DNA of 64,000 nt from Rapana venosa (Eukaryota; Mollusca; Gastropoda; Neogastropoda; Muricidae), in assembly GCA_028751875.1 (NCBI GenBank), contig CM054167.1, positions 21,392,556-21,456,555 on the forward strand, read 5' to 3'. Every line of letters begins with the position of its first letter. Position 1 is the stretch's first letter. The position numbers and the translations under genes are program-made. The notes beneath the pieces were generated by a model. The model was given only the letters and a program-made list of their open reading frames with translations. It searched no databases and was not told the DNA's origin. This document shows positions 5,881 to 51,110 of the stretch, in pieces.

Positions 5881-7143
5881 TCAAAGAAAAAGCAAGCGAA
5901 TGGATATAAGAGACAGAAGAAAAAAAAAGAGAAAAACCTTTGACAAGAAACTATGACACCAAAAACCCACCGATTTGTAATCCCAAGCTTGACAAAGTCC
6001 CCGTACTCACAGAGACAGGAGCGCTATCTATCGTCGGGTTTCCAACCTTTAACCACCTAAAGGGTCACTCACCCACAGCCTGCACTCTGTCCGTCTCCCT
6101 CATCACATCCCAGAATCCGTGCCAGACCACAACCACACACCCAGTGAGAAGTCTGCCAGTATGACCATTTTCAAGAACCTTGCCATTTAGGCAGCCATAC
6201 TCTGCCTTCAGAGGAGGAGTGGCGTTTGAATTTCCCGGTAAGTCTGCCGGGTCATGCTGGACATCGATTCAATACTGGCACGAAAATGGACGACGAATCT
6301 GAACAACGACAACAACATGGGAGCCTTGCAGGGACGGGTTTACACAAATGGTGTGTATCTGCTTCCTTCAGTGTCTACTAACCTACAGGTCTAGCTAACT
6401 CCTAGATCTCTCTTTCTCTACTTGTTTCATCTCTATCTGTCCATCAAATCAAACAAGAAATTTAGCTGACATAAAACGCAAGCTAGTTATTTCCAGGTAT
6501 TCACATTTCGATACAGAACCAATCAAACACACAAAATCAATTTTGCTGCGAACATAGTAGCTCCAAACGTATGGCTTGATCAAGTCACCCACTTGATCCA
6601 TTTTGATTTCTCAAACAAACAAACAAAAAATTTTTTTGAGCAAGAAGCTGAGCATTATTGCCATTCAAATGAGTCGTCATGGCAACAATCCACATATAGG
6701 ATCACAAATACTTGCTGTGTGTGGTGCATTCTTTGTGGCCGTGCTATATCTCCTATCATTACTACCGAATTCATCGACTGACTGACGTAGAATACTTCAC
6801 AACATATCAAACTTGACACAGAATTTGCAGACAAATAATGGAAAGATCATCCATGTTGCTAAATCTAAGCCAGATCATCATCAGCAATCCTAACCAAACA
6901 ACTTCTACATACCGATCCACACAACACTGGCAGCAGCTAACATTACATCAATGTCTTATTCACTCTATGTACCAGGTCAACCCAGGACACACTACATGTT
7001 TTACAATCCACATAACGATCCATAGTTTCATACTACCAAAAACAAAAAAGTAGTGCAAAAATGTTTATAAAACTGTTCTGAAGCAATCAAATTCAAAATT
7101 TGAACGTAGCTATTCAAATTTTTATTTTAAGTACAGGGGAGGG
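5881..7143. other. Unassigned 3' flank
   Basis: No supported gene, RNA or repeat family. Short open frames here have no domain signal. Confidence 0.4.
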
Positions 7144-13393: not shown

Positions 13394-13564
13394 TCACAAC
13401 ACTGTTCGATGCTTGAAAACCACCTCCGAGTCCACGTTGGAGAATTCGTTGGACAGCAGAAACTGAGTGTCGTCTGCGGAACTGGGCGTGCTCCGCATCA
13501 CGGCAATGGCCGCCGCACTCTCGCTGCGCATGCGCCCCTTCTTCCGATTCAGTGTGGAGGATCT
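13394..13564 (-). CDS. Exon 22: last coding exon with stop
   Basis: Acceptor TTTGGCAG, phase 0. It codes 56 residues beginning RSSTLNRKKGRMRSES and ending FSNVDSEVVFKHRTVL, then TGA. The basic cluster may be membrane-proximal or a trafficking signal. The last four residues RTVL fit the class I PDZ ligand pattern (Thr at -2, hydrophobic at 0). Phase agrees with exon 21. Confidence 0.85.
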   Translation of the reverse strand, partial: RSSTLNRKKGRMRSESAAAIAVMRSTPSSADDTQFLLSNEFSNVDSEVVFKHRTVL

Positions 13565-16500
13565 CTGCCAAACAAAATAACGTGACAAAGGACAACATGA
13601 CAAAAGGTACAGGTCAAACAAAGGACAATATGACAAAGGCCAACATGACAAACGCACAGGCCAGATGAAGGACGTGACAAAGGTACAGGTCAGATGAAGG
13701 ACAACATGACAAAGGTACAGGTCAGATGAAGGACAACATGACAAAGGTACAGGTCAGATGAAGAACAACATGACAAAGGTACAGGTCAGATGAAAGACAA
13801 CATGACAAAGATGAAGGACAACATGACAAAGGCACAGGTAAGATGAAAGACAACATGACAAAGGTACAGGTCAGATGAAGGACAACATGACAAAGGTACA
13901 GGTCAGATGAAGGACAACATGACAAAGGTACAGGTCAGACGAAGGACAACATGACAAAGGTACAGGTCAGATGAAAGACAACATGACAAAGATGAAGGAC
14001 AACATGACAAAGGTACAGGTCAGATGAAGGACAACATGACAAAGGTACAGGTAAGATGAAGGACAACACGACAAAGGTACAGGTCAGATGAAGGACAACA
14101 TGACAAAGGTACAGGTCAGACGAAGGACAACATGACAAAGGCACAGGCCAAACAAAGGACAACACGACAAAGGTACAAATCAGATGAAGGACAACTTCCC
14201 CGAGGGGATGCCGGGGGCCTATCAGTATAAATAGCATCCCCACATTCTGGAAATTCTGTGCTAGAAATTTCCTCTTTTCTATCACTCTCTTTGTTTCTGC
14301 CTTGTTCCTTTTCTTCCTGTCACGTCCTTCTTGTCTATTTTCTGCATTCTTGGTCCATTCTCCTGCCTTTTTTCCCAGAAAGAACTTAAAAGGTAACTAT
14401 TCTCTCTTGCGCCGAAGTCGGATACGCTGGGCCTGACTTGTCAGGCGATTAATGGCAGCGTGACACATTTTCGCTCATATAACAGACAACAATAGTTGCT
14501 GTCTGAGCGTTCGACGAAGAAGAAGAAGAAGATGAAGGACAACATGACAAAGGTACAAATCAGATGAAGGACAACACGACAAAGATGAAGGACAACACGA
14601 CAAAGGTACAGGTCAGATGAAGGACAACACGACAAAGGTACAGGTCAGATGAAGGACAACATGACAATGGTACAGGTCAGATGAAGGACAACACGACAAA
14701 GGTACAGGTCAGATGAAGGACAACATGACAATGGTACAGGTCAGATGAAGGACAACATGACAAAGGTACAGGTCAGATGAAGGACAACACGACAAAGGTA
14801 CAGGTCAGATGAAGGACAACATGACAAAGATGAAGGACAACACGACAAAGGTACAGGTCAGATGAAGGACAACACGACAAAGGTACAGGTCAGATGAAGG
14901 ACAACACGACAAAGATGAAGGACAACACGACAAAGGTACAGGTCAGATGAAGGACAACATGACAAAGGTACAGGTCAGATGAAGGACAACATGACAATGG
15001 TACAGGTCAGATGAAGGACAACATGACAAAGGTACAGGTCAGATGAAGGACAACACGACAAAGGTACAGGTCAGATGAAGGACAACACGACAAAGATGAA
15101 GGACAACACGACAAAGGTACAGGTCAGATGAAGGACAACACGACAAAGGTACAGGTCAGATGAAGGACAACACGACAAAGATGAAGGACAACACGACAAA
15201 GGTACAGGTCAGATGAAGGACAACACGACAAAGGTACAGGTCAGATGAAGGACAACATGACAAAGGACAACGTGACAAAGGTACAGGTCAGATGAAGAAC
15301 AACATGACAAAGGTACAGGTCAGATGAAGGACAACACGACAAAGGTACAGGTCAGATGAAGGACAACACGACAAAGGTAGAGGTCAGATGAAAGACAACA
15401 TGACAAAGGTACAGGTCAGATGAAAGACAACATGACAAAGGTACAGGCCAGATGAAGGACAACATGACAAAGGTACAGGTCAGATGAAGGACAACATGAC
15501 AAAGGTACAGGTCAGGTGAAGGACAACATGACAAAGGTACAGGCCAGATGAAGAACAACATGACAAAGGTACAGGTCAGATGAAAGACAACGTGACAAAG
15601 GTACAGGTCAGATGAAAGACAACGTGACAAAGGTACAGGTCAGATGAAGGACAACGTGACAAAGGTACAGGTCAGATGAAAGACAACGCGACAAAGGTAC
15701 AGGTCAGATGAAGGACAACATGGCAAAGGTACAGGTCAGATAAAAGACAACGTGACAAAGGTACAGGTCAGATAAAAGACAACGTGACAAAGGTACAGGT
15801 CAGATGAAGGACAACATGACAAAGGTACAGGTCAGATGAAGGACAACATGACAAAGGTACAGGTCAGATGAAGGACAACATGACAAAGGTACAGGTCAGA
15901 TGAAAGACAACGTGACAAAGGTACAGGTCAGATGAAAGACAACATGACAAAGGTACAGGTCAGATGAAGGACAACATGACAAAGGTACAGGTCAGATGAA
16001 GGACAACATGACAAAGGTACAGGTCAGATGAAGGACAACATGACAAAGGTACAGGTCAGATGAAGAATATCCCCTGTGGGGATGCCAGGGTCCTGTCAGC
16101 ACACACAGCATCCCCACTTTCTGGAAACTGCGCAAGAAATTCCCTCTTTTCTATCCCTCTTTGTTTCTGCCTTGTTCCTTTTCTTCCTGTCACATCCTTC
16201 TTGTCTATTTTCTGCCTTCTGGGTCCATTCTCCTGTCGTTTTTTTCCCCATAAAAAACTTGAAAGATAACAATTCTTTCCCCATGCCAAAGTCAGATGCA
16301 CTGCGCCTGACTTGTCAGACGCTTAACAGCAGCGCAATGCATTTTCACTTTTTATATGACGGACCAAAATAGTTACTGTCTGAGCGTTCAAAGAAGAAGG
16401 AGGAACGAGCTGCTCTGAAGTGGGAATGTGTGGGCTGCGGCCAGCAGGCAGACCTCCTGTAAAGTCACAAGCACAGGAGAAGAAGACCAGGTACTACGCA

Positions 16501-22924: not shown

Positions 22925-25900
22925 ATTTGAATTTTGTTTAAGCTTTTGATAGTTATTGGCTGCATGACTCTGTAAGAATATGTTGAATGCAAGCGCTCTG
23001 ATTTGTCTTTGCAAGATAAAGCGCTATATAAATTTCATTTATTATTATTATTTAATGGGTGGGGGGGTAAAAACAGTCGCATGTATACACAAAATCTCGC
23101 CATGGGTGAACCTCAAGAGCTCTAGCCAAGAAACAACCCCCACCCAACATCCCCCCCCCCCCCCCCCCCCCCCCTCAAAAAAAAACCAACAGCCAAAAAA
23201 CTACCAAAAAAAAAAAAATCCATGACAGGAAAATTTACGTGACCACCAAGACACCCACCTTGTACGAAGAAGACATCGCGGTCTGTGGAAGGAGGCACGA
23301 CCAAGACTTGGGGGACAGTTTCGCCGACACCTCCCCCCACGGGCAGATACACAGGGGGGCCCTGAGAGAAAACACACACAACACACACACACACGCGTGT
23401 GCACACACACACACGCACACAAACAACACACACACACACACAACACACACACAAATAATAATAATAATATATGGAATTTATATAGCGCTGAATCTTGTAA
23501 AGCAACAAATCAAAGCGCTCAGATGGCATTTTTATTTTATTTTTATTATTTTTATTTATGCGTGTGTATGCGTTTTTTTAAATTTTGTCATCTGTTCCCA
23601 CCGGCACACAATGGCCTACTCTTTCGAAAAGCGGAACAGGATTTAATGTGTGCGCAAGATGTTCTGCATGCGTTCGCACACGGGGCCTCGGCTTGTAGTC
23701 TCATCCGAAGGACTTTAACATTCAATTCGAATTTTTTGTCAAACTGGGAGGAAAGGGAGAGGCTGGGAAGTGAACCCAGAACCTCACGGTTTACTTGTTG
23801 GCAGGCAAACGTCTTAACCATCCTGCCACCTTCCTTCACACAACACACACACAAGGAGTCACTGTTAGTTTCCTGTTTAGTCAGCCACACCAGCTGGGTG
23901 GGCAGGACATCAGGGTGGGTGGATGGTCTAACGGAAACGAACCTGTCTAAGAATGCAACAGGTTTTGAGTTCAATCCCCATCTGAACCTGAATATCCCTC
24001 AGTCGGAATGCGGCTACCTGCATGGTGAGCAAAAACGGTCGCATACGCAAAATCTCAACTTTGGCGAACCTTGGAGCTCTAGCCAAGGAACAAATAAATG
24101 CTAAACAAAAAAACAAAAAACCCAACACCTGAACATTTTCCCCATTCACTAAGACCTTGAGTGGCGGTGTAGTGCTTGTTTTTTGGGCTGAGAAGATAGA
24201 TATACCTGTGTCCTGTGTTCAACATACCTTTGGCACACATAAACTAACCCATTGTCAACATTACATAGGAGTTGGCCCTGACAAAACAAGTCTGTGGAAA
24301 AACAGCCTCACACTCACAGGGGAAGACATAAACACACACAAGCAGACTGGAGGACCTGCTCTAGTGGTGACACGCTCAGTGGGTTTCAGGTGAACCATTT
24401 CAGGTGAACCGTTTCAGGTGAACCGTTTCAGGTAAACCATTTCAGGTGAACCGTTTCAGGTAAACTGTTTCAGGTGAACCGTTTCAGGTAAACTGTTTCA
24501 GGTGAACCGTTTCAGGTAAACTGTTTCAGGTAAACTGTTTGAGGTGAACTGTTTCCTACACTTACAGAGTATTCCTATATCAGTGAGATCCATCCATGTA
24601 TGAGAGCACAGAAGTAGACAAGCACTGGCGCATTGTGCACACGCATGACACACACATACATACACACACACACACACACCACAAACGCTCACACACACAC
24701 ACTCTCACCAAAACACACACACCACAAACACACACACACTCTCACCAAAACACAACACACCACAAACACAACACACACGTGCACTCACCACAAACACACA
24801 CTCACTCACCCCACCCACACCCCTTCCCCCCCACACCCCCTCCCCCACACACATATACACACACTCACAAACTCAACAATAATCATCCTCACTCATCCAT
24901 CACCATCCTCCTCCTCCCCTCATCATCATCATCACATCATCACCATCATATCATCCCTCATCATCATCACTGCAGTCATCTCATTACCTCCCCCCTTGCA
25001 TCCAGTTTCTGGGCCTGCTGACTCAGCCAGGTGGGGTCTGCCAGTTGTTGTGGCGTTCCGCTTTTTGCTGCCTGCTGCTGCTGCTGCTGCTGTTGCTGCT
25101 GTTGCTGCTGTTGCTGCTGCTGCTGTAGTGGTGGTGGTGGTGGTGATGATGATGACGATGGAAGGACGGATGCTGATGAATCAGAGTGTTCTGACGATGA
25201 AGATCGTTGTGGGTTGCTGGTGATGAAGTCATTGGCCTCGTCCATGTGTCTGTAACCAAAAGCAACGTGGAGAAGAACTGTAGAAAGTGAGATGAAGGCC
25301 ATGCAGCACTCTTGGGGATCAGTGACTAGGTTGGCCCAGAATAAGCAGGAGTGGAAGCGCTTTGTTGCTGCCCTACACACCGCTGGGTGTAATGGCTAAT
25401 GATGATGATGATGATGATGTGTCTGTAAAAGATGGCGTCATCAATGCGCAAGTCTCTCCTCTGATGTCAGAGTATGGCTGCCTATATGCCGAGGTGCTAA
25501 AAAACCTGTCACAACACAAGCAAACTTCTCATCCAGCGTGCAATTTCCAATCTTAAATTGATTCCCGTGTACGATGAGTGAGTCAGAGTGCACAGACCAA
25601 GGAGTCTCAATTTCAAGCACAGACCAAGAAGTCTCAATTTCAAGCACAGACCAAGAAGTCTCAATATCAAGCACAGACCTAGGAGTCTCAATATCAAGCA
25701 CAGACCAAGAAGTCTCAATTTCAAGCACAGACCAAGGAGTCTCAATATCAAGCACAGACCAAGGAGTCTCAATATCAAGCACAGACCAAGGAGTCTCAAT
25801 ATCAAGCACAGACCAAGGAGTCTCATTTCAAGCACAGACCAAGGAGTCTCAATATCAAGCACAGACCAAGGAGTCTCAATATCAAGCACAGACCAAGAAG

Positions 25901-35716: not shown

Positions 35717-38700
35717 CGTGTGTTACACAAAATTTTCAGCGCACGTAAAAGAACCCACGGCAACAAGGGAGTTGTCCCTGGCAAAATTCTTAGAAAAAAG
35801 CCACTCTGATAGGAAAACAAATACAGTTGCAGACAAAAAAACAAACAAAACAAAAAAAAAAAGAAAAAAAAAAAAAGAAAGGGTGGCACTGCTCTTGTGG
35901 CGACGCGCTCTCCCCGGGGAGAGCAGCCCGAATTTCACGCAGAGAAATCTCGTGACTTAAAGTGGTATAAAATAAAAATAAAAATAAAAAAATAAAAAAG
36001 GAAGAAGAAAAAGAAGTATCTTCAGCCATAGCAAGTCCTTAGCATAAGAACCTGTACTCAAAACCTTAGCGTAACTCATTGAGGTTGTGCCGAAGCTTAA
36101 GCTTCGGCACTCCTCTCCTTTACTGTGACGTGCCGAAGCTTAAGAATCGGCAGAATTACGAATTTTTTAAAAAAACACAAAGTGATGGTTAACTCAAGGG
36201 AAAGTACTCTGGCCTGTAGGGCAATCATTTTTCTAAACACAGTTGCTTTCCTTGACCATAAGCTTGCCTTGTTTTTGTCTGTTGGCCAATTTTGTTTAAC
36301 ATGTCAACAAGTGATATCTTTGGGATTTCAGGCACTCCAGTGTTATGAGTCTTTAAAAAAAATAATCTGTTGTACAAAAAGTGACATCACATGGATTCAG
36401 CCAGCTTCAGGGAACTTTACTTTGGTGAAAAACCATCCCATTGTTTCAAGGGGACTAGTTGATGAATAGTTCAAGCCATTTAAGATACCAGCCCTAATTT
36501 TTAAAACTTTTTATTTTTCAGCATTCAGTGACATATTTTGAAAATTTGTAAAAAATAAATACAGTCATCTATTAAAAAACTGTGAAACAATCTCAAAAGA
36601 AGACATGATAAACTTTTCAATGATGTATAATGTGTATGTCATTATTATGTTGGGTAAGTATACTGAATTTTTAAAATATAGCCAAAATCACGCGTCACCA
36701 CAAAATGGCGGGATCCATTTCACTGCGACTCCAATGAGTTAAGAACAAATCCTGTAAAGTTGACGTATGGCTGCCTATATGTGGCAAAGAAAAAGTCACG
36801 CACAAAACTCCTCAACCAGTATGCGCTTTCAATCTCGCAGTAATTCCCACAAACAGGGCAAGTGAGAGAACAACACCATAACAGCAATCTCCCACACTGC
36901 ATGCACAGGGACAATGGACAACAATTATAAAAAACAAACAAACAAAATAACCCATACACTCCCCTCCCATCTCAGCAATCCTTCTGGTTAGTTTTTTTTT
37001 TTTCCCCATTCCTCAGCTAGAGCTCCGAGGTTCACCTATGGTGAGATTTTCGTGTATGCGGCCATTTTCCCCCAACAATTTAGGTAGCCACATTCCGACT
37101 TCAGCCATGGTGTCTACACACGACACTGGTCTGCATGCTTTTTTGAAATTCTGTCATCTATTCCTACCAAGCACACAATAGCCTACTCTTCCGAAAGGTG
37201 GAACAGGTTTTAAAAATGTGCGCAAGATGTTCTGCATGTGTCCGCACACTAAGAGTCTCGGTTTCTAGTCTCCGCCGAAAGACTCTGACTGACATCCAGT
37301 TTGATTGTTTTCCGTCAAACTGGGGAAGAAAGGGCAAGGCTGGGAATCACATCCACAACTCACTCACGGTTCACTTGTCAGGCAGACGAAGGTCTTCACT
37401 GTCCTGCCATCTTCCTTCTTGTTGGTTATTTATGAGACTATAAACCGAGGCCCCGCGTGCAAACGCACGCAGAACATCTTGCACACACGTTAAATCCTGT
37501 TCCGCTTTTCGAAAGAGTAGGCCATTGTGTGCCGGTGGGAACATGACACAATTGACAAAAAACCGCATACACACGGGGACTGGATGTAAAAAAAAGCACA
37601 TGAGTACTTATTCCATTATCCTTGGGGGAAAAAAATGTCATCTGAGCGCTTTGATTTGTCGCTTTACAAGATTCAGCGCTATATAAGTTCCATACATTAT
37701 TATTATTATTATTATTAAAAAAAAACAAACCCCGAGGGAATGCCGGGGGCCTATTAGTATAAACAGCATCCCCACACTCTGGAAATTCTGTGCTAGAAAT
37801 TTCCTCTTTTCTATCACTCTCTTTGTTTCTGCCTTGTTCCTTTTCTTCCTGTCACCTCCTTCATGTCTATTTTCTGCCTTCTTGGTCCATTCTCCTGCCT
37901 TTTTTTTCCAGAAAGAACTTAAAAGGTAACTATTCTCTCTTGTGCCAAAGTCGGATGCGCTGGGCCTGACTTGTTGTCAGGTGCTTAACGGCAGCGTGAC
38001 GCATTTTCGCTCATATAACAGACAACAATAGTTGCTGTCTGAGCGTTCGACGAGGAAAAAGAAGAAGAAAAAAACCAAAGCGTGGCATGGAATGGTGTTG
38101 CAGCCAGCCTTTACCGGTGCGCAGTTTGATGAAGGTGACGTTGCCCCTGCCTGCAGTGTTCAGGGCGCTGACGGAGATGTTGTACAGCACTCCTGGCTCC
38201 AGCTCCCTCAGCACCACCCGAGGCTTGTGCACCACCAACACCTTGTGCTCCAACGCTGTCACACACACACACAACAATAATATAAAGGTAAAAAGGTAAA
38301 CGTGTCCCATAACCTATAAGGTCGTAGGGGAGCGAGGCGTCAGAGACCTCACTTCTCTAGGGCCAGCATATTGAGGGCAGTGGCGCCCATCTCCTCCTCT
38401 CCCTCGCTGCTTTACCTTCCCTGACCCTAAAGAGGACAGGTACCCATTTACAGCTGGGTGAACTGGGGGAACTGTACTGAAGCCAAGGCATGGCGCAAAC
38501 GGTCACCCATCCAACTGGTAACCACGCTCGACGCTGCTTAACTTGGCTGGGGGAAAGCGAGCGCTCTGACCACTGAGCTATCCCATCCCCCAACAATAAT
38601 ATAAAATAACAATATAACCCCTTGAGAGGTTTTCATGTTTTCATGTTTCTGATGAGCCAGCTGGTGCAACGTTCGTCACTGCAGTGCCCCCTACGACCCC

Positions 38701-41700
38701 GGAGGGGGTTGGTTGGTTATGGGAGCAGATGAGATGAGATGATGATGAATTATCCAAATTATTATTAACAGCTATTGTCCTGGGAAAAACGCTATGTATG
38801 TCAGTCTTCTTTTTCTTTTGTCAAACGCTCAGACAGCAACTGTTGTTGTCTGTCATATGAGCGAGAACACATTGTGCTGCCGTTAAGGGGCCTGAGAAGT
38901 CAGGCCCAGTACATCCAACTTCGGTGCGGAAGAAAACTGATTTTTTTTTTAAAAAGCTTTCTGGGGGGGGGGGGGGGAGGGGGGGGGAAGGCAGGAGAAT
39001 GGACCAAGAAGGCAGAAAACAGACAAGGATGAGGTGACAGGAAGAAAAGAAACAAGGCAGAAACAAAGAGAGAGAGAGAGAAGAGAGGGAATTCCTAGTG
39101 CAGAATTTCCAGAAGGTGGGGATACTACCTATACTGACTGGCCCACAGCATTTCCATGGAGGAAGCTGTGTCAGTTACTTATGTAAGCAAAGTGCTAAGG
39201 CCTACATTAAAATGTTGTTATGCTTTCCAATGTTGTCATGAGACTACTCAAGTCATGACAAGTTCAAAGCATAACAACCCACACTCTCCTTTAAAGGAGA
39301 TTTTTTTTTAAAAACATCCACTGATTGAAGTTGGAGTATGGCTGCCTATATGGTGAGAAATGTAAAAACAGCCGTACATGTGAACTTCTTATCCAGAGTG
39401 TACTTAGTCTCACAGTGGCTACCAGGTGTGATGAGTGAGACAGAGTGCATATTCTGGGTATATTGTGCGCACAATCATACCCTGAGTATTCAATCACACA
39501 CACACATTAGTGTGTCCAATATCACTTAATGTGAAAAGACTTTATATCAAAATCACACACACAACAATAAAACAAATAACAAAAAGTAGTGAGGACATCA
39601 AAACAGCAACAACAAAATTTAAATATATGTAAAAGATACACCTACCTGAAAAAGGAACAGGATGGTAATCTACCCGGTACCCTTTCAACACCCCATTGAG
39701 CTCCACAGGGGGTGCCCAGGACAGGGAGATAGAAGTGGAGGAGATGTTGAACGCCACCTGACGCACTGGACCAGCAGCTGTCAAAGCACACAAAACCACA
39801 GTCACCTGGATTTCCAGCCAAGATAAAAACAAAGGTAAAGGTGTCACATTTATAACCTATGCGGTCGTTCAGCAGCGAGGTATCAAAGACCTCAAGCTTC
39901 TCCAGGGGCCAGCATGTTGAAGGCAGCGACCATCTCCTCTCCCTCGCTGCTTTACCTTCTCACACCCTAAATTAAGAGGGCAAGGTACCCATTTACAGCT
40001 GGCGGACTGTGCTGAAGCCAAGGCGCGCAAACAGTCGCCCATCTACTTGGTAACAACGCTCGATGCTGCTTAACCTTAGCTTGGGGAGAGAGAGAGTGCT
40101 CTGACCACTGATCTATCCCTTCCCACTAGCCAAAACTAATGAAGAAAAAAACACACCAGTAAACAAACTATAAAAAAAAATAAATAAATAAAAAGACCCC
40201 ACAAGAACATCCCCTTCCACCACCTTTTCAGAAGAGTAGGCTATTGCATGGTGGTAAGAATGGATGACATTTACCACACAAAAAAAACCAACAACAACAA
40301 ACTGCATACACACTGGTCTCGTGTTAAGACATCATTCCTGAAGTTGGAATGTGGCTACCTTAATGGTGAACAAACGGTTGTCTATGATGATGAACCTCAG
40401 AGCTTTAGCTAAGGAACAAGGGAGAAAAAAAAAAGAAACAAGAATCCCTGAAACGAGAGTTGCCTGATTTTTTCCTCCCTTTCCTTGGCTAAAGCTCGGA
40501 AATTCACCAATGGTGAGACTTTAGAGTATGCGACCGTTTTCACCCACCACGAAGGTAGCCGCATTCCGACTTCGGGGATGTGTGCTGGGTATGTTAATGC
40601 TTCCGTAACCTACCAAACGCTGACATGAATTACGGGATCTTAAACGTGCATATCTGATCTTCAGCATGTGTATATACACGGAAGGAATTAAAGCACTGGC
40701 AGGTTTGCACTTAAAAGTTGGACCTGGGAGACGGCAAGAATCCCCACCCTTAATTCACCACATGCTGTCAAGATGGCAAGAATCCCCACCCTTAATTCAC
40801 CACATGCTGTCAAGATGGCAAGAATCCCCACCCTTAATTCACCACATGCTGTCAAGATGGCAAGAATCCCCACCCTTAATTCACCACATGCTGTCAAGAT
40901 GGCAAAAATCCCCACCATTAATTCACCACATGCTGCCGAGATTTGAACCCACGATTTCATGGACCCATGGGATTCAAGTTGAACGGTCTTAACCACTCAA
41001 GCCATATCATCTGTCGGTGTCTGCTAGAGAAAAGTAATAATAATAATAATTATGATAATGTATGAAATTTATATAGCACTGAATCTTGTAAAGCGCTCAG
41101 ATGACTTAAAAATTTTTTGTTATCGAGGATAATGGAATAAGCACTCATGTGCTTTTTTTTTACATCCAGTCCCCGTGTGTATACCGTTTTGTCAATTTTG
41201 TCATCTGTTCCCACCGGCGCACAATGGCCTACTCTTTCGAAAAGCGGAACAGGATTTAACGTGTGCGCAAGATGTTCTGCGTGCGTTCGCACACGGGGGG
41301 GGGGCCTCGGTTTATATAGTCTCATCCGAAGGACTTTGACATTCAGTTCGATTTTTTGGGGAGTCAAACTGGGAGGAAGAAAGGGCGAGGAGGCTGGGAA
41401 TCGAACCCAGAACCTCACGGTAGACTTGTTGGCAGGCGAACGTCTTAACCGTCCTGCCACCCTTCCTGTGGTACTGACCTGTCTGCAGGGTGTGTGCCTG
41501 CACCACTGCCGTGAAGGGCCCTGTTCCTGGAAACACCTGCCTGGTCTCTGCCGCCACGCGCACATCGTACCACGACCACGCCGCCACGCCACTGAAACCA
41601 AAAGAGATGGTTTGGGTTTGTTGTTGTTGTTGTTGCATGTTTCCAACACAACTCGTATATCTGGCGACAGACTAGCGTCCTGTCACAGGGGTGGTGAAAA

Positions 41701-44010
41701 ACCATCAGTTCGCTTAACGCTACAGAAACCGGGATAAGCTCCGGCTCTATGGTCCTTCTGGATCGAAAGAACATACTTCGTATATCATACCACGATCGCC
41801 ACGCCACTGGAACCTAAGAGATGGTTTGGGTTTGTTGTTAGTGTTGTTTGCTGTTTGTTATTGTTGCATGTTTCCAACACAACTCGTATATCATACCACG
41901 ACCGCCACGCCACTGGAACCAAAGAGATGGTTTGGGTTTGTTGTTGTTGTTGTTGCATGTTTCCAACACAACTCGTATATCATACCACAACCGCCACGCC
42001 ACTGCAACCAAAGAGATGGTTTGGGTTTGTTGTTGCTGTTGTTTGCTGTTGTTATTGTTGCGTGTTTCCACCACAACTCGTATATCATACCATGACCGCC
42101 ACGCCACTGGAACCAAAGAGATGGTTTGGGTTTGTTGTTGTTGTTTGCTGTTGCTGTTTGTTATTGTGCATGTTTCCAACACAACTCGTATATCATACCA
42201 CGACCACACCACTGAAACCAAAGAGATGGTTTGGGTTTGTTGCTGTTGTTTGTTGTTGTTATTGTTGCATGTTTCCAACACAACTCGTATATCATACCAC
42301 GACCACACCACTGAAACCAAAGAGATGGTTTGGGTTTGTTGCTGTTGTTTGTTGTTGTTATTGTTGCATGTTTCCACCACAACTCGTATATCATACCACG
42401 ACCGCCACGCCACTAGAACCAAAGAGATGGTTTGTTGTTGCTGTTTGTTATTGTTGCATGTTTCCAACACAACTCGTATATCATACCACGACCGACATGC
42501 CACTGGAACCAAAGAGATGGTTTGGGTTTGTTGTTGTTTGTTGTTATTGTTGCATGTTTCCAACACAACTCGTATATCATACCACGACCGCCACGCCACT
42601 GGAACCAAAGAGATGGTTTGGGTTTGTTGTTGTTGTTTGCTGTTGTTATTGTTGCATGTTTCCACCACAACTCGTATATCATACCACGCTGACACGCCAC
42701 TGAAACTAAAGAGATGGTTTGTTGTTGTTGTTTGCTGTTGTTATTGTTGCATGTTTCCACCACAACTCGTATATCATACCACGCTGACACGCCACTGAAA
42801 CTAAAGAGATTGTTTGTTGTTGCTGTTTGTTATTGTTGCATGTTTCCAACACAACTCGTATATCATACCACGCCCACGCCACTGAAACCAAAGAGATGGT
42901 TTGGGTTTGTTGTTGTTGTTTGCTGTTGTTATTGTTGCATGTTTCCAACACAACTCGTATATCATACCACGACCGACACGCCACTGGAACCAAAGAGATG
43001 GTTTATTGGCCCAGGCCAAAAGCTGTGGTCAGTTATTGATGTCCGCTAACTGCCAAGGCCTACAAAAAAAAATGTTGTTATGTTGTAAAATGTTGTGTTG
43101 TTGAGATTGCCTTCTTCAGCCATGACAAGCTCAACCTGCAATCTCCTTTGTTAAAGGAGAAAAATCCTCTGAAGTCGGAGTATGGCTGCCTATATGGTGA
43201 GGTACTTGAAAAGAGTCATACACGCAAACTTTTCATTCGGTGTACTTCCTATCTCACAGTGATTCCCAGGTGGGATGATGAGTGAATCAAAGTGTGGCAT
43301 GTTCTGGGTGACCCCCAGGGTGTAAAGCTGGGGAACGCACAACAACAACAACAAAAAGGTTGTTTGGGTTTGTTGTTGTTGTTGTTGTTGCATGTTCCCC
43401 AGCTTAACACCCTGTGGTTCACCAAGAAAAGACAGTTATTATGGTAGTGGTTTCTGCATTCAATGAAATCAGCCACACATGCTCTTCTTCTTGTCGTTGG
43501 GCATTCCTCAGCTTAACATCCTGGGGGGGGGGGGTCACCCAGAATGCACGCTACTGTGACTCACTCATCATCCCACCTGGGAATCATCATGAGACCAAAA
43601 GTACACACTGGGTGAGACGTTTAGGTCTCTGACTGTTTTGAAGTAATTTGCTGCACAGGCAGCCTTCTTCCATCTTCAGAGGATTTTTTTTCCTTCTATG
43701 AAGAAGTAAAGGTTGTTATGCTAAGAAGTTTAACACATTGTTTTTTGTCTTTTTGTTTTTGGCTTTGTTATGCTAAGAGTTTGTTGTATATAGCTGAAGA
43801 CAATCTCAATACAATATTTCAAAGCATCAAGACACTTTGACGCAGGACTTGGCACTTCAATCAGTAACCGATAAGTTTTTGACCTAGGCCAATGATTTCG
43901 TTCACTTTCCTTCATCTTTTGAATTGAAGGAATATTGGAATGAATGAAATGAAGTGGTCAGAAGAAAACGAACAAAATTAAGGTAGCTGTTTGAGAGACT
44001 GGTGTAATGT

Positions 44011-44063
<53 letters not shown>

Positions 44064-44297
44064 TTGAGTGAGTGTGTATGTGTGAGTGAGAAATTATGTA
44101 TGTATGTGTGTTTGTGTGCGTGCACATGTGTGCGGTTGCATGTGAGCGTGAGTGCACATGTGTGTGTGTGTGCATACACACATGCCATGCATGTGTGCGG
44201 TGCATGAGTCTGTAAAAATCTTGAGCAAGCATTCATTGACTATGTGCCTATTCACATTCGTTGAGTATGTAAAAGTATGTGAGTATGAACCCGCTAT

Positions 44298-44350
<53 letters not shown>

Positions 44351-45609
44351 ACACACACACGGACATGTTAATGCTATGACCTTACCTGATGGACACACTA
44401 AGGGTGTGGTTATCCAGAGTGGTTAACTCTTTCCATGCAGGGCTCGTGGCCAGGCGGTACTGCACCACGTAAGCAGCCAGCTCACAGTTGCGGTTCTTGG
44501 CGGGCACGGGCTGGAAAGAGTTAAATGTGATATAAATGTTACATCAAGACTGAACTGACAATGAAAAGGCTTGGGGGGGAGGGGGGTTGAAGTTATTTGG
44601 GGGTAAGGGGGAAAAACAGTGACATCAAAGTAATTTTGAATCAAATCATGCATATCTGAAATTTTAAGAAAAACCAGATATGCAAACAAACAAATGAAGC
44701 ATTGCCTGAATTCAACCTCTTTGTCCTTGCAAACTAAACTACAAACCTTTCTTGAACTAATGAAAACAAAACAAAAAAACCAACATATCAAGCTTAACAT
44801 GGTAAATTTTTTTTAAAAACAACAGAAAACAAACAAAAAAATCGCTAGAATTAATCTTCTTTGTACTTGCAAACATAAAACCAAATACCTTTCCTGAAAC
44901 TGAAAAAAAAAATTCATTATAAAAAAAATCCAAAGCATGGCAGTTTTCTAGTTTAAAAACCAAAACCCCAAACCAAACCCACCGACATTATACACAAGAA
45001 TAAAAGGAAGGAGAGGAGGGTGGAAGAGGGTAACATCATCTGCACCCCCTCCCCCCCCCCAAAAAAAAAATCAGTCAGTGTGTGCCCTTTACCTGCCAGG
45101 AGATGTGTAGAGTGTTTCCCGGAAGAGCAGACACTTCTAGATTCTGAGGAGGACTGCCAGGCACTGAAACATGCAGTGACAGAGGTTTTATAGTGGTAGA
45201 AGTAGAATTCATAGTAGTAGTAGTAGGAGGAAGAGGAGGAAGAGGAGGAAGAGGAAGAGTAGTAGGACTAGAAGTAGGAGTAGGAGCAGGAGTAGAAGTA
45301 GTAGTAGTGGTTGGCATAGTAGTAGGAGGAGTAGGAGTAGTCTACTACAACTCCTCCTAGTAGGAATAGTAGAAGTAGTCATAGGTGGAGGAGGAAGAGG
45401 AGGCGTACTAGTAGTAGTAGTAGTAGTAGTAGCAGTAGTAGTAGTAGCAGCAGCGGCGGCGGCAGTGGTAGTAGTAGTAGGAGCAGGAGGTGTAGGAGTA
45501 GTAGTAGTAGAAGTAGTAGGAGGAGGAGGAAGAGGCAGCTGCTGCAGCAGCAGTAGTAGTCTCATAAAAGAAGTAAAAGCAGTAGAGTAGTAGTAGTAGT
45601 AGTAGAAGA

Positions 45610-45641
<32 letters not shown>

Positions 45642-48600
45642 AAGTAGTAGTAGTAGTAGTAGCAGCAGTAACAGTAGCAGCAGCAGCAATAGCAGTAGTA
45701 GTAGTAATAAACCAAGCCTTTCCCTTTCTTCCCAGGTTGACGAAAAAAAATGAACTGAAAGTTAAAGTCCTTCAGATGAGACTATTAACCAAGGCCCCGA
45801 ATGCACGCAGAACATCTTGCGCACGCTTTAAAAACCCCATTCCGCCTTTTGGAAGAGTAGGCCATTACGTGCAAGTAGGAAGGGATGACAATTTTTTTTT
45901 TTTTTAATGCAAGCACACATGTGTCATGTCTAGACACCATCCCTGAAGTTGGAATGCGGCTACCTAAATGATGGGGGTGAAGGGAGTAGAGGGAATGATT
46001 GCATATGCACAAATTTCACCATTGGCAAACCTCTAGTAGCTCTAGTCAAGGGACAAATAAAACAAAGAGCATGTGCAAAATGTTTCCTGCACTTTTGGGT
46101 ACTGGAAAAAACTTCACGTTACTCTCGTATCTACCTCCCCCACCTCCCCAACCACCACCCCTGCACGCTAATGGAGTAAGAACTAAATGTTTACTTCAGG
46201 AGGAAAGACTCGAACCTGTGACCTCAGGCCGCCATTACATTATCTTCTTCTTCTTCGTCTTCTTCATCGAACACTCAGAGAGCAAGTACTGTTGTCTGTT
46301 ATATGAGTGAAAATGCATTGCACTGCCGTTAAGTGCCTGACAAGTCAGGCCCAGCGCACTCAGCTTCAGTGTGCCATTACATAGTGAGTTCTAACAGTCT
46401 TCTTCTTCTTCTTTGTTGAATGCTCAGACAGCCACTATTGCTGTCTGCTATAAGAGCAAAAATGCGTCACGCTGCCGTTAAGCGCCTGACACATTCAGGC
46501 CCAGCGCATCCGACTTAGGCATAAGAGAGAACTGTTATCTTTTAAGTCTTTCTGGGGAAAAAAAAAAAGCAAGAGAACGGACCAAGAAGGCAGAAAACAG
46601 ACAAGAAGGAGGTGACAGGAAGAAAAGGGAACAAGGCAGAAACAAAGAGGGGGATAGAAAAGAGGGAATTCCTAGTACAGAATTTCCAGAAGGTGGGGAT
46701 GCTGTTTATACTTAAAGACCCCCCTCCCCCCCAGCATCCCCACAGGGGAGTCCTGACAGTCTAACTCATACAATATTCCACATCTTTCACTCCAAGATTG
46801 TGTCAGAAGTGAAAGTCTGAACCATATGCTAGAGATTCTTTTCTAAGACCAGAGGCCCATCCCTCCCTAAACTGTCTTTTTAAAACAGTAGAAAATAATT
46901 GATATATACCTCTATCCAATTTTTTTTTGTGGGGGGGGGGTCTTGGAACAACGAATCTCACCAGTAGGGTCCGTTCTGATGCCGATGACCTCGCTTTTGG
47001 GGCTGACGCCTTTCGCGTTCTCGGCCTCCACGGTAAAAGAGTACCTTGTCCAGGGAGATAAATCTCTGATCACAACAGTCTGCTGGGAACTGTCGGTAAA
47101 AACGGAGCCCAGCGTTGGAGTTCTGTTCTCCAGCCGGTAGGTGACTTTGTATCGGAGGATGGGTCCATTTTGCTGCCCTGGGGGTACAGGCTGAAAAACA
47201 ATATAAATTAATTAGTTAGATAAATATATATATGTATGTATATGTGTGTGTGTTATACAATGGATGGGTCCATTTTGCTCTCGTGGGGTTAAAGGGAGGA
47301 AAAAAAACAAAAACAGTATTCTAAATAAAATATAAAAGCAAAAAAGTTGAACCTCGTCCCCCCCAAAAAAAAAATTAAAAACAAGAGTTAAGGGGGAAGA
47401 AGGGGTGGGGTGGGGGGTGGGGGGGGGGGTTAAATCCCTTTTTCACAAGTGCGACATTAAGATTCAAGATTTCATTCTTTTTCCACCCCTTTTGGGGTAT
47501 GGAGGATTACAAACGAATTCAACAGGAAAAGAAAACCTAATAGAAATACTTCCCAAAATAAAACCAACACAACCAGGAACTGAAAAGCAAGAGTTCATCG
47601 CAAAATGATAAACAAACAGTAGTAAAGACTCAAGACATTTCAGCGCTATATAAATTCCATACATTGTTATTATTACATCAATTTCTTTAAAAGACACAAT
47701 CTACACCGATAAACAAACAGTAGTAAAGACTCAAGACATTTCTTTTATGTAAAGTGTATCAATTTCTTTAAAAGACACTAAAAGACACAATCTACACTTG
47801 CGAAAGACAGAAAAGGAATAAGGCCGAAACAAAGAGGGATAGGGAAAAAAAAAGAAAAAGAATTCCTAGCACAGAATATCCAGACAGTGGGGATGCTATT
47901 TATACTGACAGGCCCCCCTGGCATCCCCACAGTGGGGGGAGGGTGGGGATGGGGGAGATGGGGAGTCTCTCAGATCGAAATTTATCCACAGTTACGACAC
48001 GAACACCTACCTGCCAGTTGACCTGTACAGAGAAAGGACCCAGCACAGACACCTCCACGCTTCTTGGGGGGCTGGACGGAGCTGATAGAGTAAACACACA
48101 CACCATTAGTGATACTTACACACACTTCTCTGTGTATATATATTGTGTGTGTATGTGTTATATATACATATTGTGAAAAATCATGATCACATACAACACA
48201 CATGTATCTCAACACTCCTTCGGATGAGACTATAAACCGAGGCCCCGTGTGCAAACGCATGCAGAACATCTTGCGCACACGTTAAATCCTGTTCCGCTAT
48301 TCGGAAGAGTAGGCCATTGTGTGCCAGTGGAAACAGATGACAAAATTTACAAAAACGCATACACACGGGGACTGGATGTAAAAAAGCACATGAGTGCTTA
48401 TTCCATTATCCTCGATATAAAAGAATAAATAAAATAAAAAATAAAAACACAAAATCAAACAAAAAAAACCCAACACACATCCCTTCACCTTCACCTAACC
48501 CTTAGTCTTCTTGTAGACCGTTGGGGTACCACTGAAGATTTTGCAACCAGCTTCCTCCATAATTTTCTGCGTGTATAAAATCCATACATGCATGTGTGAA

Positions 48601-50137: not shown

Positions 50138-51110
50138 GGCAGATTGGTGGTTAGAACATTGCACTCATGATCTGACAGCCTGGGATCGAGCCACCATGGA
50201 AGCGCCACTTTTAGGAAATTTTACCCTGGAGTTAGCATTAGTATGGACTCCACTCTCCCATAATTTCTTCGAATGGGACGATAAACTGAAGCCCCATGAG
50301 TGAATGCATACAAAACATCTTGCGCATACGTTAAAAACCCGTTCCACCTATTGGTAGGAAGGGATGACAAAATCTTTTTAAAACAACACTGGTGCTGTGT
50401 TTAGATACCATCCCTGAAGTCAGAATGCAGCTACCTTAACGGTGGGTAAAAACGGCTGCATACGCAAAAGTCTAACCATCGGTGAACCTTGGAGCTCTAG
50501 CCAAGGAATGAAAAAAAAAAGAAGTTAAAAAAAGAAAATCTAAATTCAGAGTGGAGGACAGACAGCAGAAGACTGACCAGTTTCGTTGTGTGGTTTAAAC
50601 TGCAGCTGATAGTGCTCGATGTTGCCGTTGGGTTGGTCCGGAATTTCCCAGTAAACGGTGGCTGTGGTGGCGGTGGTGGAGATCACTCGTACGTTTCTTG
50701 GGGCGGACGGGCCTGCACACATTTCAAAATTATTATAAAAAATTCCTCTGGAGTTGGAGTATGGCTGCCTGTATGGCAAGGTACTTGAAAAATGATAATA
50801 ATAATAATGATAATAATAATAATAATGTATGGGATTATTTACAGCGCTGAATCTTGTAAAGGAACAAATCAGTCATTTGTACAGACTTTTCATCCAGTGT
50901 GTAGGTACAGTCTCACACTGATTCCCAGGTGGGATGAGTGAGACAAGAGTGCATGTTCTGGGAGACCCCCAGAGTTGGAAGCTGGGGAATATGCAACAAT
51001 AATAACAACAACCAACCGACCAACCAACAACAAAAAAAAGTTTCTTCTTTAAACATGGAAAAGGAAAACGGCAATTATCCTGCATTCAAGTTTCGTAGTC
51101 AATAAACAAT

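What the first reader, a model, noticed from the sequence alone, without database searches (positions are those of the whole stretch)
41592..43012. Tandem array built from a splice acceptor and the start of an FN3 exon
Seen: about 13 units upstream of exon 15 each keep an AG acceptor with its pyrimidine stretch (CTCTTTGGTTCCAG or variants) and then a diverged copy of the exon start. The exon reads TGGTACGATGTGCGCGTG (WYDVRV); the units read TGGTATGATATACGAGTT (WYDIRV), so four of the five changed codons are silent or conservative, and the similarity extends to the next ET codons. Two units at about 42694-42786 keep the correct phase (SGVSAWYDIRVVVET); most others lost 5 nt and hit TGA at once. 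Inference: an old duplicated exon was caught in a minisatellite and amplified into a ladder of decoy or alternative 3' splice sites. The protein fold and regulatory use are unknown.
Basis: partly seen in the sequence, partly recalled or inferred. Interest (0 to 1): 0.78.

Follow-up and report, generated by a model that had tools for sequence, protein, structure and literature searches.

The report
Splice-acceptor minisatellite in a snail gene
In a sea-snail cell-adhesion gene, the start of one exon and its splice signal were copied into a row of about 13 look-alike repeats just upstream of the real exon; this type of repeat is already known from amphioxus, and here it looks like harmless debris rather than a working splicing switch.

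Summary
On the minus strand, in an intron of a gastropod Ig/FN3 adhesion-receptor gene, 13 tandem units (87-106 bp; one carries an insertion) each hold a pyrimidine tract, AG and a diverged copy of about the first 40 nt of the next exon. The exon's own acceptor is the array's last unit: its intron flank matches the unit consensus at 68 of 69 aligned bases, but exon +25 to +40 at only 10 of 16. So an old copy of the exon start was probably amplified and homogenised by unequal exchange. This is the plan of 'mirage' minisatellites, described in amphioxus. Corrections: the ET similarity is better explained by a repeat-derived spacer; the two in-phase units regained phase and are two codons short; the silent-change bias is not significant. 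Eleven of 13 acceptors lead to a stop after 6-7 codons, and units hold only weak 5' splice sites. A second, degenerate acceptor-boundary copy lies 105 nt upstream of another exon of the gene. Function: most likely none, at most leaky decoys; splicing could not be observed. New member of a known kind.

The parts
41609..43004 (-). Mirage-type minisatellite: 13 tandem units of 87-106 bp (one longer, with an insertion), each = pyrimidine tract + AG + diverged copy of about the first 40 nt of exon FN4c + CAA-rich spacer
41479..41591 (-). Authentic exon FN4c (SGVAAWSWYDVRVAAETRQVFPGTGPFTAVVQAHTLQT), second half of the fourth FN3 domain counted here; donor GTCAGT
   Evidence: in-frame join of 11 exons; identical start in Nucella
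41592..41661 (-). Authentic acceptor and its 70-nt intron flank; 68 of 69 aligned bases equal the array consensus (spacer length gaps not counted), i.e. it is the array's last unit
44386..44510 (-). Upstream exon FN4b, ending in phase 2 (AG|), which would be spliced to any of these acceptors
42699..42794 (-). First exonic-like bases (42794 and 42699) of the two units that read in phase (SGVSAWYDIRVVVET); 6 nt shorter than the exon
41653..41777 (-). 125-bp insertion (counting one copy of the 9-bp target duplication GATATACGA) inside the unit nearest the exon; absent from the 12 other units
43367..43394 (-). Copy of the unit's spacer (CATGC, CAA repeats, AAACCCAAAC) at the end of a dispersed repeat in the same intron; related tail near 50988-51010 (+)
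47262..47306 (-). Second, degenerate duplicate of an acceptor boundary: copy of the start of exon FN3b about 105 nt upstream of it, acceptor AG lost
   Evidence: 80% over 45 nt, E 7.8e-6; 18 nt exact; no shuffle of 60 reaches its score
46962..47190 (-). Exon FN3b, source of the second duplicate

Best explanation
This is a 'mirage'-type minisatellite: a tandem array whose unit spans an intron-exon boundary. Step 1 (inferred): the acceptor and about the first 40 nt of exon FN4c were copied upstream in the intron, next to the CAA-rich tail of a dispersed repeat. Step 2 (inferred from the divergence): the copy drifted and lost 5 nt and its frame, while the real exon stayed under protein-level selection. 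Step 3 (inferred): unequal crossing-over between the near-identical acceptor regions amplified the segment to 13 units and kept it homogeneous. The real exon's acceptor takes part, because it is the array's last unit (shown), so the homology breaks inside the exon at about +24 rather than at the splice site. In the transcript the 13 extra acceptors most likely stay silent: they resemble the real one in strength, but only the last is followed by a complete 113-nt exon with a good 5' splice site, so exon definition picks it (inferred). Any leak to the others would mostly give an early stop and RNA decay (inferred).
For: Same acceptor tract in 13 of 13 units and the exon. Intron flank of the real exon 68 of 69 aligned bases to the array consensus, exon +25..+40 10 of 16, Fisher p 1e-4. 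Unit pairwise identity mean 0.961 over 12 clean units. Core similarity 18/24 against a best of 16/24 elsewhere. The exon start is identical in Nucella and has the same length in Batillaria, P0054 and Gigantopelta, so the unit deletions are derived. Best GT in any of 13 units scores 4.5, below 12 of 13 own donors; no sign of selection on AG. Stop after 6-7 codons for 11 of 13 acceptors. Published amphioxus cases have the same plan and are reported not to disturb splicing (PMC3087553, passages; PMC3902484, one passage). Another boundary copy lies in the same gene.
Against: Unit acceptors score about as well as the real one on a small gene-trained matrix (1.2-7.3 against 7.0), so leak splicing is plausible. 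The best GT of the units (4.5) exceeds the gene's weakest donor in leave-one-out (3.3, FN1a), so a donor in the units is unlikely but not excluded. The codon-position signal is not significant. The gapped shuffle test of the core is modest (13 of 2000), and two of three homolog queries hit no unit. No DNA from a related species and no RNA data could be examined, so the order of events rests on one sequence. The exchange mechanism is inferred.
Confidence: 0.78

Rival explanations
1. The array is a functional ladder of decoy or alternative 3' splice sites that tunes output of the gene by sending part of the transcripts to early stops. (Rivals here are not all mutually exclusive: this one concerns use, the next one origin.)
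For: All 13 AG sites are kept and most score close to the real one; two units read in phase. An association between an intronic minisatellite and alternative splicing regions is reported in C. elegans (PMC4039745, abstract).
Against: AG retention is expected without selection (P 0.46); only weak 5' splice sites in units; in-phase units are derived and short. Of eight homologous proteins looked at, four show this junction and none of these carries array sequence, but they are from other species, so this is weak evidence.
Confidence: 0.1
2. A recent, simple tandem duplication of the boundary: the unit holds only the first ~24 nt of the exon, and the following 'WYDIRV'-like bases are native intron sequence that resembles the exon by chance.
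For: Identity falls sharply after +24; codon-position test not significant; gapped shuffle test modest (13 of 2000); amphioxus mirages are described as boundary duplications of this simple kind.
Against: 18/24 in register against a best of 16/24 in 124,770 positions, and 12/18 without the shared prefix (25 of about 124,800); the Nucella protein hits a unit on its own.
Confidence: 0.13
3. A dispersed element carrying its own splice acceptor inserted and was amplified, donating the exon's acceptor.
For: The spacer's CAA tail resembles the end of a dispersed repeat.
Against: The exon start is conserved in gastropod homologs, and the acceptor tract (up to 2 mismatches) and the WYD segment (up to 5) are not found elsewhere in the window. 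The rest of the genome could not be searched.
Confidence: 0.04
4. Assembly artefact of a repeat-rich intron.
For: None seen; neither reads nor the whole genome could be examined.
Against: Units differ individually (pairwise identity 0.909-1.000 over 12 units) and one carries an insertion with a target duplication.
Confidence: 0.02

Closest known systems
'Mirage' minisatellites of amphioxus (globin BflGb6; Adh3; troponin C; PGBD5 repeats)
   Same: Tandem, minisatellite-like repeats spanning an intron-exon boundary; BflGb6 repeats hold the 3' end of an intron plus the 5' part of the next exon, many but not all keep AG/GT signals, units 81-100% identical, regular splicing reported undisturbed (PMC3087553 passages; PMC3902484 one passage)
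   Different: Gastropod, not lancelet; 13 units of about 100 bp (BflGb6: 6 and 3 units of 150-160 bp in two haplotypes); exon part diverged from the exon while intron flank and acceptor are not; spacer with a dispersed-repeat tail; the cluster edge (the real acceptor) is homogenised with the array, whereas the BflGb6 cluster edges are described as excluded
Tandem repeats at exon-intron boundaries of human genes in segmental duplications
   Same: Minisatellite copy-number change at exon-intron boundaries (PMC2812944, passages)
   Different: Those repeats create novel introns and alternative transcripts with transcript support; here there is no transcript evidence
Arrays of alternative exons of arthropod Dscam (recalled, from no call)
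   Same: Ig/FN3 adhesion receptor with tandem copies of exon sequence
   Different: Dscam copies are complete exons with both splice sites; here only the exon start is copied, mostly out of frame, with at best weak donors

Membership tests
Mirage minisatellite | Tandem repeats that span an intron-exon boundary of the host gene | tested here: met
   Units contain acceptor plus exon start; the last unit is the real boundary
Mirage minisatellite | Splice signal kept in many units | tested here: met
   AG kept in 13 of 13
Mirage minisatellite | Concerted evolution between units | tested here: met
   Mean pairwise identity 0.961 in 12 units; 68 of 69 aligned bases for the exon's own flank
Mirage minisatellite | Copy-number instability between haplotypes or cells | not testable with these tools
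   One sequence only
Mirage minisatellite | No interference with normal splicing | not testable with these tools
   No RNA data; only that the coding exons join in frame
Alternative-exon array (Dscam type; features recalled) | Each copy is a complete exon with both splice sites and a frame compatible with its neighbours | tested here: not met
   Only about 40 of 113 nt of the exon are represented; 11 of 13 frames stop after 6-7 codons; best GT 4.5, below 12 of 13 own donors

The most novel reading that the evidence does not exclude
Copying of exon acceptor boundaries about 100 nt upstream is a recurrent mutational process in gastropod genomes (2 of 14 exon starts tested in this one gene, this array included), producing mirages outside the chordates; their copy number changes which acceptors compete and so supplies raw material for new introns or tunable splicing.
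Probability: 0.15. Interest if true: 0.62.

Novelty: new member of a known kind. Interest (0 to 1): 0.37.

Why it matters
In my searches, boundary-spanning minisatellites called mirages appeared only in amphioxus (with related boundary repeats in human segmental duplications); in amphioxus they were proposed as seeds of new introns. A mollusc case, with a second degenerate copy in the same gene, would mean the process is not a lancelet oddity. It also offers a natural test of how the spliceosome picks one acceptor out of 14 near-identical ones, and shows a splice site evolving in concert with a minisatellite.

Tried and rejected
Dscam-like alternative exons: rejected; incomplete exon copies, mostly broken frames, weak donors. 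Whole duplicated exon: only about the first 40 nt are represented; beyond that the unit matches a dispersed-repeat tail better, with the switch point uncertain by a few bases. Coding selection on the unit copy: codon-position test not significant. Selection on AG: not needed. Long open frame through the array (300 aa): frames of 318 and 321 aa are open on the other strand as well, so it is a property of the repeat. Structured RNA: no Rfam match at gathering threshold in 38000-48500. First donor test: one search scored one unit and scored own donors on a matrix that contained them; one search repeated it for all 13 units with leave-one-out, which weakened the contrast (own 3.3-11.7, units at most 4.5). 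The 13 donors exclude Ig58.1 (my exon end was one base short) and Ig59.38 (end not at a donor). Boundary copies at other exons: 14 exons, both ends, 60 shuffles each; only the FN3b and FN4c starts beat every shuffle; the next best, the FN3a start, was reached by 3 of 60. In that scan the Ig59.38 end was an arbitrary cut, the Ig58.1 end one base short, and exon Ig59.85 was left out. The BLAST scan of 15 exons with 25-nt flanks gave, besides these two, one weak distant hit each for FN2a (E 0.009) and FN5b (E 0.003). Ig exon borders were not checked by a frame join. Literature: searches; the terms tandem repeat, splice acceptor, gastropod, intron and exon together gave no paper. Only open-licence papers are held; the founding amphioxus paper (PMC117041) is not. 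Papers seen only in search listings were not used as evidence.

Full report
What was checked. The finding lies on the minus strand, in the intron between two exons of an Ig/FN3 adhesion-receptor gene. I rebuilt the gene locally: eleven FN3 exons (53287 down to 38115) join with GT and AG signals into one frame without a stop. Homologous proteins come from Nucella lapillus (70% identity), Littorina saxatilis (61%) and Batillaria attramentaria (42%), and more distantly from Gigantopelta (named DSCAM homolog) and Patella (named DSCAML1). The window is therefore from a gastropod, most likely a caenogastropod (inference). By tblastn the gene runs from at least 61891 to its end near 13397. The exon of the finding, called FN4c here, is 41479-41591. 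FN4b (44386-44510) ends in phase 2, so AG|T gives Ser, followed by GVAAWSWYDVRVAAET. Nucella has the identical 17 residues SGVAAWSWYDVRVAAET.

The array. Thirteen units precede the exon, each starting with ATCTCTT and a kept AG. They differ mainly in a short GTGG-rich linker and in the CAA-rich spacer. Twelve clean units have a mean pairwise identity of 0.961 (range 0.909-1.000, aligned bases only). The thirteenth, next to the exon, holds a 125-bp insertion (counting one 9-bp target duplication, GATATACGA) that the other twelve lack, so it probably came after the last amplification.

Is the exon similarity real? In fixed register the 24-nt core matches the exon at 18/24. Outside the array and exon, 124,770 ungapped positions of the window reach at most 16/24. 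Without the shared TCGTGG the score is 12/18, reached at 25 of about 124,800 positions. Among 11 FN exons, the best match of the core to any exon other than FN4c is 13/24. A gapped test against 2000 shuffled exons was weaker, with 13 reaching the real score. Used as tblastn queries, the Nucella protein hit one array unit at 42206-42159 (16 residues, E 0.008), whereas the Batillaria and Littorina proteins hit none; the Littorina protein ends before this exon. So the similarity is real, but short.

Corrections. (1) Four of six mismatches fall on third positions, which is not significant (Fisher p 0.13); the silent-change argument is suggestive only. (2) The ET similarity is better explained by the spacer. 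A chimera that switches from exon to the dispersed-repeat tail after 21 nt of the WYDIRV block matches 28/36, against 21/36 for the exon alone and 18/36 for the repeat alone, using the copy at 43394; the copy at 50989 gives 27, 21 and 16. Switch points from 19 to 26 nt score only one match less, so the border is soft. (3) Homologs fix the ancestral length: SGVAAWSWYDVRV (Nucella), SDVKPWSWYEVRV (Batillaria), SNVDPWSYYELRV (P0054), SDLDYWTEYEIEV (Gigantopelta); these are the four of eight homologs looked at in which the stretch was found. The units' losses of 5 nt (8 units), 8 nt (3) and 6 nt (2) are thus derived, and the two in-phase units regained phase and lack two residues.

Anatomy that reveals the history. 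The 70-nt intron flank of the real exon matches the array consensus at 68 of 69 aligned bases (length gaps in the CAA spacer not counted), and exon +1 to +24 at 19/19 around a 5-nt gap, but exon +25 to +40 only at 10/16 (Fisher p 1e-4 for flank against +25..+40). The real acceptor is therefore the last unit of the array, and the break lies inside the exon. If the array were a fresh copy of the boundary, the exon part should be as similar as the intron part. The simplest order is an old exon-start copy that diverged, followed by amplification with unequal exchange in which the real acceptor took part. The exchange itself is inferred.

What would splicing do? Reading from FN4b, 11 of 13 array acceptors reach a stop after 6-7 codons; the two in-phase ones read 127 and 287 residues, with Asn/Gln-rich stretches, before a stop. 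On a small matrix trained on 13 other acceptors of this gene, unit acceptors score 1.2-7.3, the real one 7.0, and the other exons -1.6 to 12.4 in leave-one-out; 2.3% of 261 background AGs reach the real site's score. Acceptor strength alone thus does not single out the real site. Of 126 GTs in the 13 units the best scores 4.5; the gene's own 13 donors score 3.3-11.7 in leave-one-out, 12 of them above 4.5. Units therefore hold at best weak donors, and exon definition is the likely reason for choosing the last acceptor (inference). Keeping AG in 13 units is expected by chance with P 0.46 at the observed change rate. The four homologous proteins that show the junction contain no array sequence, and the Littorina model ends at this junction with RQDFLS, which is not array-like. 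These are other species, so they say little about this array.

A second case. A scan of 14 exons for copies of their starts upstream and of their ends downstream found one more: the start of FN3b (47190) has a copy at 47262-47306, about 105 nt upstream, 80% over 45 nt (E 7.8e-6), with 18 identical bases in a row and the AG lost. FN3b and FN4c starts are the only ones of 28 tests that beat all 60 shuffles (the limits of that scan are in Tried and rejected).

Known kind. [quoted passage not shown] Similar cases are cited for Adh and troponin C, and PGBD5 has imperfect ones (PMC3902484, one passage). The present array meets the structural features tested; instability and splicing could not be tested. 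My searches showed no mollusc case in the titles and abstracts listed, but only open-licence papers are held and most listed papers were not opened.

Limits.

Noticed in passing
window 47262-47306 (-): Degenerate copy of the start of exon FN3b about 105 nt upstream of that exon, acceptor AG lost: a second acceptor-boundary duplication in the same gene.
   Followed up: yes
window 13636-16065: A 2.4-kb array of 32-bp units ends some 70 nt before the last coding exon; unit-like TTTGTCATGTTGTCCTT sequence runs almost up to its acceptor.
   Followed up: partly
window 25066-25125 (-): Trinucleotide repeat encoding about 18 Gln in the cytoplasmic part of the same gene; the Batillaria homolog has a shorter Gln stretch in its cytoplasmic part.
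   Followed up: no
window 41653-41777: 125-bp insertion (with one 9-bp target duplication) in one unit; a BLAST of 41668-41790 found no other copy in the window.
   Followed up: partly
window 43160-43690, also 39163-39459, 50882-50989, 25457-25590, 6137-6215: Dispersed repeat family, partly inverted, two copies of which have a CAA-rich end that resembles the array's spacer.
   Followed up: partly
window 41000-41470: Abundant dispersed repeat: 27 further matches in the window, of differing length, about 71-90% identical.
   Followed up: no
Littorina saxatilis protein P0002, C-terminus: The public gene model ends at the FN4b junction (SITIRQDFLS), as if the predictor failed to find the next exon at the intron that carries the array here.
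   Followed up: no
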